A stretch of 39,275 nt of DNA, from assembly GCA_949298535.1 (NCBI GenBank), contig CASFXA010000065.1, forward strand, positions 1 through 39,275, given 5' to 3'. This DNA comes from an uncultured Oscillospiraceae bacterium. Lineage in GTDB: Bacteria; Bacillota; Clostridia; Oscillospirales; Ruminococcaceae. Positions 19,905-36,382 of this stretch are shown here, one piece after another. The position numbers and the translations under genes were made by a program. Below the pieces are notes generated by a model, which had not been told where the DNA came from, did not search any database, and saw only the letters and a program-made list of their open reading frames with translations. Position 1 is the stretch's first letter; each line of letters starts with the position of its first letter.

Positions 19905-19934
19905 GAATATCAGCCGTTCGGAGCAGCGAGCGGC

Positions 19935-20093
19935 AGCGATAGAGGCGCAGTTCTCAGAATACCCCGAAGATTCGGCCGGGCAGCCGACGGGGGAAGGGGT
20001 GAACTGCCGAAGGTCCTTTCCCCGCCCGGGGGCAGGGTCCTGGGCCGGCGCAGGAGATGCGCCGGACTGTCACGAAAGTGGAGCGCTATCGTT
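19935..20093 (+). promoter_or_regulatory. Lysine riboswitch (L-box)
   Basis: The P1 helix pairs CGATAG (19937-19942) with CTATCG (20086-20091). Inside lie the L-box landmarks: AGAGGCGCAG just after P1, a CTGCCGAAGG element near 20003-20013, and the highly conserved ACTGTCACGAAAGTGGAGCG run just before the 3' P1 strand (20066-20085). The element binds L-lysine and normally stops transcription when lysine is plentiful. A terminator follows (20131-20176), and the next gene is an NhaC-type transporter known from lysine-riboswitch regulons. Confidence 0.95.
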
Positions 20094-20130
20094 CATCGGC
20101 TTCAGAGCGGAGAAAGATCCTTTCTCATTT

Positions 20131-23176: not shown

Positions 23177-23250
23177 AAAGAAAAGGAGAAAAACGGATTT
23201 TTTGGGGAGATGGTCCCCTCACAAGGGAAGGCGGTTTTCTCCACAAAAAA

Positions 23251-23313
23251 CCGTATATTTTCAGCGGAATGGGCTGTCAGTTTCTACCCTCCGGCCACCC
23301 CGGGGGACTACGG
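23251..23313 (+). promoter_or_regulatory. Purine riboswitch, guanine class, with atypical L3 loop
   Basis: The 63 bases align without gaps to positions 17-79 of the Bacillus xpt guanine aptamer. P1 is CCGTA/TACGG; the ligand-core bases U22, U47, U48, U51, A52 and C74 are all present (TTTCTACC in J2/3, GGACTACGG at the end). C74 specifies guanine or hypoxanthine rather than adenine. P2 has only four solid pairs (CAGC/GCTG); L2 keeps the two Gs (positions 37-38). P3 is strong, but L3 reads GCCACCC instead of the usual CCnnAAA, so loop-loop contacts must differ. Terminator hairpins follow. Confidence 0.8.
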
Positions 23314-23318
23314 GAAAG

Positions 23319-23386
23319 CAGGTTGGCGCGATCTGGCGCCCGCCTGTTTTTCCGCGCCGCCCTTCCGTTTTTGGGGCGGGCTTTTT
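23319..23386 (+). terminator. Tandem terminators in the purine-riboswitch expression platform
   Basis: First hairpin: 23319-23329 pairs with 23336-23346 (one G-T pair and one mismatch) and is followed by T5. Second: 23356-23362 pairs with 23374-23381 (one bulge), followed by T5-A-T4. CGGG at the 3' side of P1 (23311-23314) can pair with CCCG (23339-23342) in the first terminator, which would let P1 formation and termination go together. The direction of control is therefore inferred, not proven. Confidence 0.7.
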
Positions 23387-28575: not shown

Positions 28576-28788
28576 ATGAAATGTCCCTATTGCGGTAAAG
28601 AGATGGAACAGGGTTATATCCAGTGTCGGGATGGTGTGATCTGGAACAACAAAACGGTGCCGGTGGCAGTTTTGGGGAGCCTCTCTTTCAGCGCTCTCAG
28701 GCTGGGAGAATATCGTGGCCCCTGGGGCGGCCATGCGGTGGTGGCATGGAACTGTACTGATTGCCAAAAAATTATAATTGATTACTGA
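28576..28788 (+). CDS. Zinc-ribbon domain protein (DUF6487/PF20097 type)
   Basis: The 70-residue product has CPYCGKEM at its start and CTDC near the end, with QGYIQCRDGVIWNNK between, the pattern of small PF20097 zinc-ribbon proteins of Firmicutes. Function is unknown. ATG 28576 follows AAAGGAGAG and lies 18 bases after the AAC(3)-like gene, so both are probably cotranscribed. Confidence 0.82.
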   Translation: MKCPYCGKEMEQGYIQCRDGVIWNNKTVPVAVLGSLSFSALRLGEYRGPWGGHAVVAWNCTDCQKIIIDY

Positions 28789-28825
28789 AGGATGAAAATG
28801 CTGCGGGCCCGCAGACTACAAAAGA

Positions 28826-29017
28826 CCTTGTTTCAAGGAATACATAAAATTCAAAATCATAAAAATCAGGACATGTGCCTGATTTTTATACCACGACCCG
28901 CGCCCACAGGGTCGGGAAACCGGGGGTATCGCCGCCGGTTTCGTCAGGAACCAGGCGGCGTATCCAGGGGGTATTGGATACCCCCTGGAAGCGTGTCGAA
29001 TTTTTTCGACACGCTCA
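28826..29017 (+). repeat. Dispersed structured repeat, copy A
   Basis: About 190 bases match copy B (36161-36349) over the full length with scattered changes. Conserved folds are H1 AAAAATCAGG/CCTGATTTTT (28861-28870, 28878-28887), a terminator-like hairpin; an arm with GGTT-TCGTCAGG-AACC at its tip (about 28930-28960); H4, a perfect 12-bp stem 28963-28974/28978-28989; and H5, an 11-bp stem 28990-29000/29005-29015. The copy is preceded by a perfect 14-bp palindrome (28801-28814). It lies between convergent genes. Any open frame in it is a by-product of composition. Confidence 0.85.
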
Positions 29018-29019
29018 GG

Positions 29020-29056
29020 GCCCGGCAGATCAGTTTTTCTGGTCTGCCGGGCACGA
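29020..29056 (+). terminator. GC-rich hairpin closing repeat copy A
   Basis: GCCCGGCAGA (29020-29029) pairs perfectly with TCTGCCGGGC (29043-29052) around a T-rich loop. Copy B ends with a hairpin of the same shape but different sequence. Confidence 0.7.
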
Positions 29057-36114: not shown

Positions 36115-36146
36115 AGGCCCCGGACAGATTGTCTGTCCGGGGCCTT
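36115..36146 (+). terminator. Terminator of the polA-tsaD operon, left partner of repeat B
   Basis: AGGCCCCGGACAG (36115-36127) pairs with CTGTCCGGGGCCT (36133-36145) around a 5-nt loop, followed by T. Almost the same hairpin appears again right after repeat copy B. Confidence 0.8.
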
Positions 36147-36160
36147 CGGTTGTAGAAAAA

Positions 36161-36349
36161 CCTGGTTTAAGGAACAAATAAAATTCAAAATCATAAAAAT
36201 CAGGACAGGTGCCTGATTTTTATACCACGACCCGCGCCCACCGGGGCGCGAAACCGGGGGTATCGTCGGTGGTTTCGTCAGGAACCAGCGGCGTATCCAG
36301 GGGGACGGGGTCCCCCTGGAAGCGTGTCGAATTTTTTTCGACACGCTCA
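36161..36349 (+). repeat. Dispersed structured repeat, copy B
   Basis: This copy matches copy A from 36161 to 36349. Its H1 hairpin arms are identical to copy A; H4 is TCCAGGGGGAC/GTCCCCCTGGA (36296-36306, 36310-36320), where the inner pairs differ from copy A on both sides together, keeping the stem. In the middle arm a U-A pair replaces a C-G pair. H5 is conserved with one extra T in the loop. The copy is framed by two near-identical terminator hairpins (36115-36145 and 36350-36381) and again lies between convergent genes. Confidence 0.85.
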
Positions 36350-36382
36350 AGCCCCGGACAGATTGGCTGTCCGGGGCTTTGG
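36350..36382 (+). terminator. Terminator hairpin closing repeat copy B
   Basis: AAGCCCCGGACAG (36350-36362) pairs with CTGTCCGGGGCTT (36368-36380), followed by T. Its stem is nearly the same as the hairpin left of the repeat. Confidence 0.8.

What the first reader, a model, noticed from the sequence alone, without database searches (positions are those of the whole stretch)
28826..29017. Two copies of a ~190-bp hairpin-rich element with compensatory base changes
Copies at 28826-29017 and 36161-36349 align end to end. The loops and linkers are nearly identical, and the changes fall in helices in a paired way. In the fourth hairpin, copy A has GTAT/ATAC where copy B has GAC/GTC next to the same outer stem; in the middle arm a C-G pair becomes U-A. 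This pattern suggests selection for RNA (or cruciform) shape. Both copies are in the same orientation, both sit between convergent genes, and both carry a terminator-like hairpin at each end. It could be a non-autonomous mobile element, a REP-like repeat or a small-RNA family. Open frames in it have probably been annotated as hypothetical proteins elsewhere.
Basis: partly seen in the sequence, partly recalled or inferred. Interest (0 to 1): 0.85.

Follow-up and report, generated by a model that had tools for sequence, protein, structure and literature searches.

The report
Mobile repeats that duplicate terminator hairpins
The two similar hairpin-rich stretches are copies of a small, gene-less mobile DNA element that inserts itself into the stop signals of genes and often doubles the stop signal as it lands, probably using the enzyme of a known type of jumping gene.

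Summary
The repeat is real: about 42 places in the window's own genome (an Angelakisella MAG) and 74 unit matches in Angelakisella massiliensis. It is best read as a non-autonomous transposon (MITE), not a regulatory RNA. A copy is a leader plus one ~150-bp hairpin unit, or an array of 2-10 units. It has imperfect terminal inverted repeats (CAGACTGTMGAAAAA / GAGCGTGTCGAAAAA) and sits at an intrinsic terminator. In 51 of 75 copies with both flanks the terminator stem-loop (17-43 bp) is directly duplicated, against 9 of 5550 mismatched flank pairs; 48 of the 51 repeats are one hairpin filling the repeat. IS1182-family insertion sequences in the same bacterial family have the same type of ends; 3 of 6 with both ends also lie in an exactly duplicated terminator hairpin. 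One end of such an IS is assembled in the own genome. In the papers found, IS1182 relatives (IS1272/TnSha1) target terminators but delete the stem-loop; its duplication appears there only as a model. Paired substitutions are confirmed, but do not separate RNA from DNA hairpins. Clean empty sites, a live autonomous partner and function were not shown.

The parts
28811..29016 (+). Copy A of the element (leader plus one unit)
   Evidence: alignment and HMM extent; same site occupied in A. massiliensis, flanks 94-96% identical
28859..28889 (+). Hairpin H1 of copy A, ATAAAAATCAGGACATGTGCCTGATTTTTAT; its arms are near-invariant in 51 copies
28930..28960 (+). Hairpin H3 of copy A (about four paired arm types across copies)
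28964..28988 (+). Hairpin H4 of copy A
28990..29015 (+). 3'-terminal hairpin H5 of copy A; its outer arm is the right terminal inverted repeat (29002-29015 on the minus strand)
29020..29052 (.). Host terminator stem-loop right of copy A
   Evidence: sequence; fold
28801..28814 (.). Short palindrome left of copy A, perhaps what remains of a left terminator copy (no direct repeat detectable: score 4)
   Evidence: inference
36146..36348 (+). Copy B of the element (leader plus one unit); the same site in A. massiliensis holds three units
36193..36223 (+). Hairpin H1 of copy B
36264..36293 (+). Hairpin H3 of copy B
36297..36319 (+). Hairpin H4 of copy B
36321..36347 (+). 3'-terminal hairpin H5 of copy B, carrying the right terminal inverted repeat (36334-36347 on the minus strand)
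36117..36143 (.). Left copy of the duplicated terminator stem-loop of copy B
   Evidence: 27 bp, 26 identical to the right copy (score 23)
36351..36377 (.). Right copy of the duplicated terminator stem-loop of copy B

Best explanation
A family of miniature, non-autonomous transposons (MITEs) of Angelakisella. Anatomy: left terminal repeat CAGACTGTMGAAAAA, a variable leader, the near-invariant hairpin H1, further hairpins H2 (with two alternative pairings, by reading), H3 and H4, and a terminal hairpin H5 whose outer arm is the right terminal repeat. Proposed mechanism, inferred: an IS1182-family DDE transposase recognises both ends and joins them to the feet of an extruded intrinsic-terminator stem-loop, at the 5' foot on each strand. 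Gap repair then leaves the whole stem-loop on both sides of the insert. Because the terminator is doubled rather than destroyed, and lies at a gene's 3' end, insertion should cost the host little. The 150-bp unit behind H1's left arm has expanded in some copies into tandem arrays (2-10 units, mostly seen in A. massiliensis) between the same ends, and unit number changes at fixed sites. Shown: copies, ends, hairpin-sized duplications, matching IS ends, array structure, covariation. Inferred: that this transposase moves these elements, the order of strand events, and the low cost.
For: 51 of 75 copies have direct flank repeats scoring 15 or more, against 9 of 5550 mismatched flank pairs; 48 of the 51 are one hairpin filling the repeat. 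Two of these sites are counted twice, being shared by both genomes. The predicted stem starts at the very edge of the repeat in 37 of 51 (5' side) and 26 of 51 (3' side). IS1182-family transposases (NF033551, E 3e-116 to 1e-118, three tested) lie inside 1508-1581-bp elements with ends CAGYYTGTMGAAAAA (one end of L132 reads GAATAA). L130, L132 and L136 are flanked by exact 39-, 31- and 29-bp duplications that are terminator-like hairpins. The own genome holds an IS end (C128, 253 bp, 90% identical to L136) directly after a terminator hairpin; the identical 29-bp hairpin, on the other strand, precedes a MITE copy at the end of C20. The A. massiliensis MITE end CAGACTGTAGAAAAACCTG matches the IS end CAGCCTGTAGAAAAACCTG at 18 of 19 bases. 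0 of 47 placed insertions lie between divergent genes. 10 of 15 multi-unit elements are flanked as a whole by one duplicated hairpin.
Against: 24 of 75 copies show no strict duplication, copy A among them. Some are arrays that my chaining ended early, or have changed or inverted loops; others simply lack it. No clean empty site was obtained; intergenic sequence between the two genomes is too diverged. A. massiliensis (97% complete) has no close IS1182 transposase: its eight 329-aa ORFs pass the PF13751 cut-off but are only 22% identical to L136's, and the one fetched (L153) has no such ends; its copies may be relics. Three of six IS or IS-derived loci with both ends (L133, L138, L151) have no duplication but different hairpins on the two sides. 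The MITE's two ends match each other at only 11-12 of 15 bases. Strong conservation of H1 is not explained by transposition at the ends alone.
Confidence: 0.83

Rival explanations
1. A structured non-coding RNA family (3'-UTR or small RNA) kept for a host function, spread by duplication.
For: Stable folds, covariation above 500 shuffles, near-invariant H1 with loop ACATGYG found also in elements of other genera, always at gene 3' ends where placed, one H3 pair U.G in 49 of 51 copies.
Against: Whole-terminator duplications mark insertion events. No strand preference among tandem-gene sites, 10 same and 13 opposite. One-sided departures are 9 G.U versus 6 A.C cells in H3-H5 outside the ambiguous pair 159-177 (counted). 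H5's loop occurs as CTTT and, in 4 of 51, as its reverse complement AAAG. No Rfam match at gathering thresholds.
Confidence: 0.06
2. REP/BIME-like elements moved by a Y1 (RAYT) transposase acting on single-stranded hairpins.
For: Hairpin-rich, many copies, intergenic, hairpin-carrying right end.
Against: Terminal inverted repeats and hairpin-length target duplications are not REP features (recalled), and the IS with matching ends encodes a DDE transposase. Y1 transposases were not searched for.
Confidence: 0.04
3. Retro-insertion: an RNA-derived element, for example moved by a group IIC intron reverse transcriptase, which is recalled to home downstream of terminators.
For: Terminator targeting and strong RNA structure.
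Against: Terminal inverted repeats, duplication of the full stem-loop rather than insertion beside it, and matching IS1182 ends. Reverse transcriptases were not searched for.
Confidence: 0.02
4. Plain segmental duplication or minisatellite spread by recombination, without transposition.
For: Tandem arrays exist and unit number changes in place.
Against: Sharp ends, unrelated flanks, and a locus-specific duplication in 51 of 75 copies.
Confidence: 0.02

Closest known systems
IS1272 and TnSha1/TnSha2 (IS1182 family) of staphylococci, PMC5678879 and PMC4923244
   Same: IS1182-family transposase; target chosen by stem-loop structure without primary sequence specificity; for TnSha1, five of seven sites were confirmed as terminators (passages of PMC4923244)
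   Different: There the stem-loop is deleted wholly or partly and no target duplication forms. Here the whole stem-loop is duplicated, the outcome drawn as a possible pathway b in the PMC5678879 discussion; and here a MITE family appears to use the pathway
BrickBuilt MITE of Porphyromonas gingivalis, PMC4596501
   Same: Leader, tandem repeats in variable number, tail; intergenic
   Different: 23-nt unit; in the passages read, one element lies near a terminator but does not disrupt it, and no terminator duplication is described
BOX elements of Streptococcus pneumoniae, PMC3049150
   Same: Modular A-Bn-C layout, structured, MITE-like
   Different: Different modules; not described as duplicating terminators in the passages read
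REP/BIME elements
   Same: Intergenic hairpins in many copies
   Different: No such TIR and duplication signature; associated with Y1 transposases (recalled)

Membership tests
MITE | Short, multi-copy, no conserved coding frame | tested here: met
   198-225 bp in 51 single-unit copies; length from H1 to the 3' end falls in all three frames (23/22/6)
MITE | Terminal inverted repeats | tested here: met
   Imperfect, 11-12 of 15: CAGACTGTAGAAAAA or CAGGCTGTCGAAAAA / GAGCGTGTCGAAAAA
MITE | Target-site duplication | tested here: met
   51 of 75
MITE | Related autonomous IS with the same type of ends | tested here: met
   IS1182-family IS in the same bacterial family; one end in the own genome; none close in A. 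massiliensis
MITE | Moved in trans by that IS | not testable with these tools
   needs an experiment
IS1182-dependent element | Targets stem-loops or terminators | tested here: met
   48 of 51 duplications are a single hairpin
IS1182-dependent element, as described for IS1272 | Stem-loop replaced, no duplication | tested here: not met
   stem-loop duplicated in 51 of 75 MITE copies and 3 of 6 IS loci
Structured RNA family | Covariation | tested here: met
   11 of 41 pairs with double changes, 0 of 500 shuffles; cells are not independent events
Structured RNA family | Discrete transcript | not testable with these tools
   no RNA data
REP/RAYT | Associated Y1 transposase | not tested
   no Y1 search was run

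The most novel reading that the evidence does not exclude
Besides its ends, the element carries a conserved recognition module, hairpin H1 with loop ACATGYG, shared by otherwise different terminator-borne elements in other genera. The transposase or a host factor would read this folded module as single-stranded DNA or RNA, coupling transcription read-through of terminators to cruciform-targeted transposition. The tandem arrays would then be satellites that multiply the unit behind this module.
Probability: 0.15. Interest if true: 0.85.

Novelty: new variant of a known kind. Interest (0 to 1): 0.55.

Why it matters
In the papers I could find, structure-guided transposition by the IS1182 family is described from staphylococcal cases in which the target hairpin is lost. 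Here are about 50 natural insertions in which the hairpin is copied, often with edges readable to about a base. That gives a data set for where such transposases cut. It also suggests a low-cost strategy for a selfish element: entering a gene's stop signal and doubling it. And it explains a class of hairpin-rich repeats that break assemblies and can be mistaken for regulatory RNAs.

Tried and rejected
Rfam at gathering thresholds: no match for the window element or for the element in ten related loci (only riboswitches and tRNAs elsewhere). The own-genome pattern had a wrong spacing and found only two places. An autonomous element was sought by pairing ends in A. massiliensis and in nine other genomes (places were listed for six of the nine and the list was cut): I saw only short elements and arrays. 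PF13751 in the own genome first gave only a sub-threshold fragment, later recognised as the IS end. Empty sites: alignments of three loci were too diverged. The distribution scan over 394 genomes of the order is uninformative: its gap limit of 42 was too short and it missed the own copies; its one hit, L236, is a similar element. Gene orientation by longest ORF misassigned a known window gene and was replaced by a codon-usage model. The first array-chaining scripts missed units; still ends some arrays early, so 15 multi-unit elements is a lower bound. Literature: searches listed no paper on IS1182-linked MITEs that duplicate terminators, judged from titles, abstract starts and the passages read; two returned nothing. 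Subscription journals and ISfinder were not searchable. My recollection that ISfinder lists variable duplications for IS1182 members comes from no call.

Full report
Observation. The two copies are real, about 90% identical, same orientation, both between convergent genes. By element ends they span 28811-29016 and 36146-36348. Both fold far better than shuffles, copy A on either strand. The genome that holds the window (G000, 2.54 Mb, 180 contigs, 86% complete) has 46 matches, four of them short palindromic self-matches, so about 42 places; 40 of 72 first-look candidates were scored, so this is a lower bound. Many lie at contig ends, as repeats do in assemblies.

Host. Of ten same-genus genomes, own included, two have the element. 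The second, G001, has 74 matches (array units counted singly) and is Angelakisella massiliensis Marseille-P3217T by its contig lengths; NCBI places it in Oscillospiraceae. The window is therefore taken to be an Angelakisella MAG. Window copies A and B and copy L030 occupy the same sites in A. massiliensis with 92-96% identical flanks.

Target. Reading the flanks showed the same terminator stem-loop left and right of most copies that had both flanks. Test: of 78 unique full hits with flanks (129 partial hits were not used), 75 non-redundant elements entered the final test; two were dropped at edges. Three sites are shared by both genomes and so counted twice, two of them among the positives. 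51 of 75 have an ungapped direct repeat of score 15 or more, 17-43 bp long, against 9 of 5550 flank pairs taken from different elements. In the earlier run 6 of 5256 such pairs reached 15, four of them from shared or nested sites and two from similar GC-rich hairpins. In 48 of 51 the repeat folds into one hairpin reaching within 4 nt of both edges; the 5' overhang is zero in 37 and the 3' overhang in 26. Four or more T in the 8 nt after the right copy occur in 32 of 51, and four or more A before the left copy in 37 of 51, as in bidirectional terminators. Copy B has its 27-bp repeat (26 identical); copy A does not reach the threshold. In L061, L201 and L236 the two terminator copies appear, by reading, to carry the loop in opposite orientation.

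Genes. With a codon-usage gene finder, 47 of the 51 sites could be placed (two sites counted in both genomes): 24 between convergent genes, 10 and 13 between tandem genes with the element on the same or opposite strand, 0 between divergent genes. This is expected from a terminator target and gives no sign of a strand-specific RNA.

Mobiliser. The ends form an imperfect inverted repeat. PF13751 was searched in 247 genomes of the bacterial family; 40 matched at the loose threshold, 35 above cut-off. Among 30 fetched loci, IS1182-type genes are enclosed by ends of the same type in L130 (1560 bp), L132 (1508 bp), L136 (1581 bp) and L138 (1579 bp); L133 and L151 are shorter derivatives with both ends. 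Three proteins tested (L130, L132, L136) hit NF033551 IS1182 at E 3e-116 to 1e-118 and PF05598, PF13751 and PF01609. L130, L132 and L136 lie in exact duplications of 39, 31 and 29 bp, each one hairpin; L133, L138 and L151 have hairpins on both sides but different ones and no duplication, which would fit recombination between copies. The own genome has one such IS end at a contig end, 253 bp, 90% identical to L136, its 74-aa protein part 89% identical, directly after a terminator hairpin. The same 29-bp hairpin in reverse orientation precedes a MITE at the end of contig C20, so both elements may have used one target. A decayed relative lies on C36. A. massiliensis has eight 329-aa ORFs over the PF13751 cut-off, but only 22% identical to L136's transposase, and the one examined (L153) lacks these ends; no close IS1182 copy was found there.

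Arrays. In A. massiliensis at least 15 of the 55 elements have 2-10 units, and 10 of these 15 are flanked as a whole by one duplicated terminator. In L072 and L073, read in full, the inner units share one 3' hairpin type and the last unit has another. Inner units lack the left arm of H1. The own genome shows adjacent matches on C155 and C15. At copy B's site G000 has one unit and A. massiliensis three; at L030/L182 one and four. Unit number therefore changes in place.

Structure. Of 58 distinct single-unit copies I aligned 51, leaving out seven that were degenerate or first units of arrays. Four helices, 41 pairs: 99.1% of cells paired, 11 pairs with double changes, covariation 0.115 against 0.043 in shuffles, none of 500 reaching it; sliding the partner destroys it. 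Cells are not independent events; helix H3 shows about four arm types. H1 arms hardly vary (diversity 0.002), stems of H3-H5 0.095, unpaired positions of the unit 0.129, leader 0.27. One-sided changes to G.U (9 cells) and A.C cells (6) in H3-H5 are similar in number outside the ambiguous pair 159-177 (counted), and H5's loop is AAAG, the reverse complement of the common CTTT, in four copies. I read this as hairpins maintained or copied at DNA level. Against that, RNAalifold's H3 contains one pair that is U.G in 49 of 51 copies, so selection on RNA is not excluded.

Wider family. Of 297 genomes of the bacterial family searched with an A. massiliensis copy, 12 matched, eight of them only at the 3' end of the element. 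Reading these loci shows other elements, 186-239 bp in the seven that carry the motif below, with the same type of ends and different interiors, some in duplicated terminators. Of 15 such loci, 8 had both ends by a strict rule and 7 of these 8 carry ACATGYG near the 5' end; one of the seven, L106, is a full-length relative of the window family. Only 1 of the 8 (L110) passed the strict duplication score; L108 and L119 show imperfect copies by eye, and L120, which failed the strict rule for ends, an exact one. The motif was not found inside the IS elements L130, L132, L136 and L138. Its role is open.

Known work. PMC5678879 (abstract, section 22, first part of section 29 read) and PMC4923244 (passages) describe IS1272/TnSha1, IS1182 family, which target stem-loops and lose the stem-loop wholly or partly. 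[quoted passage not shown] PMC4596501, PMC3049150 and PMC10969869 (passages) give the nearest modular MITEs; a word search of the last found no IS1182. So the kind is known, and the variant, a terminator-duplicating, array-forming MITE family with IS1182-type ends, appears new within the searches named.

Noticed in passing
window as a whole; L010, L011, L012, L013, L016, L018: The window contig and C167 are 92-96% identical to A. massiliensis at the compared flanks, while other contigs of the same MAG are about 74-87% identical: mixed strains in the MAG, or recent transfer.
   Followed up: partly
19932-20096 and 23231-23330: Lysine and purine riboswitches.
   Followed up: no
L006, L047, L016, L018 (H5 loop); L061, L201, L236 (flanking terminators): Hairpin loops present in inverted orientation, suggesting flipping of hairpin loops at DNA level.
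   Followed up: partly
L108, L110, L114, L115, L119, L121; also L236 in another family of the order: Elements with unrelated interiors in other genera share the ends and a hairpin loop ACATGYG.
   Followed up: partly
L153 and seven more places in A. massiliensis: Eight copies of a 329-aa transposase-like ORF, three pairs about 1.39 kb apart.
   Followed up: no
28576-28788: A 70-codon open frame with CxxC pairs (MKCPYCGKEM...CTDCQK) ends just before copy A; read by eye.
   Followed up: no
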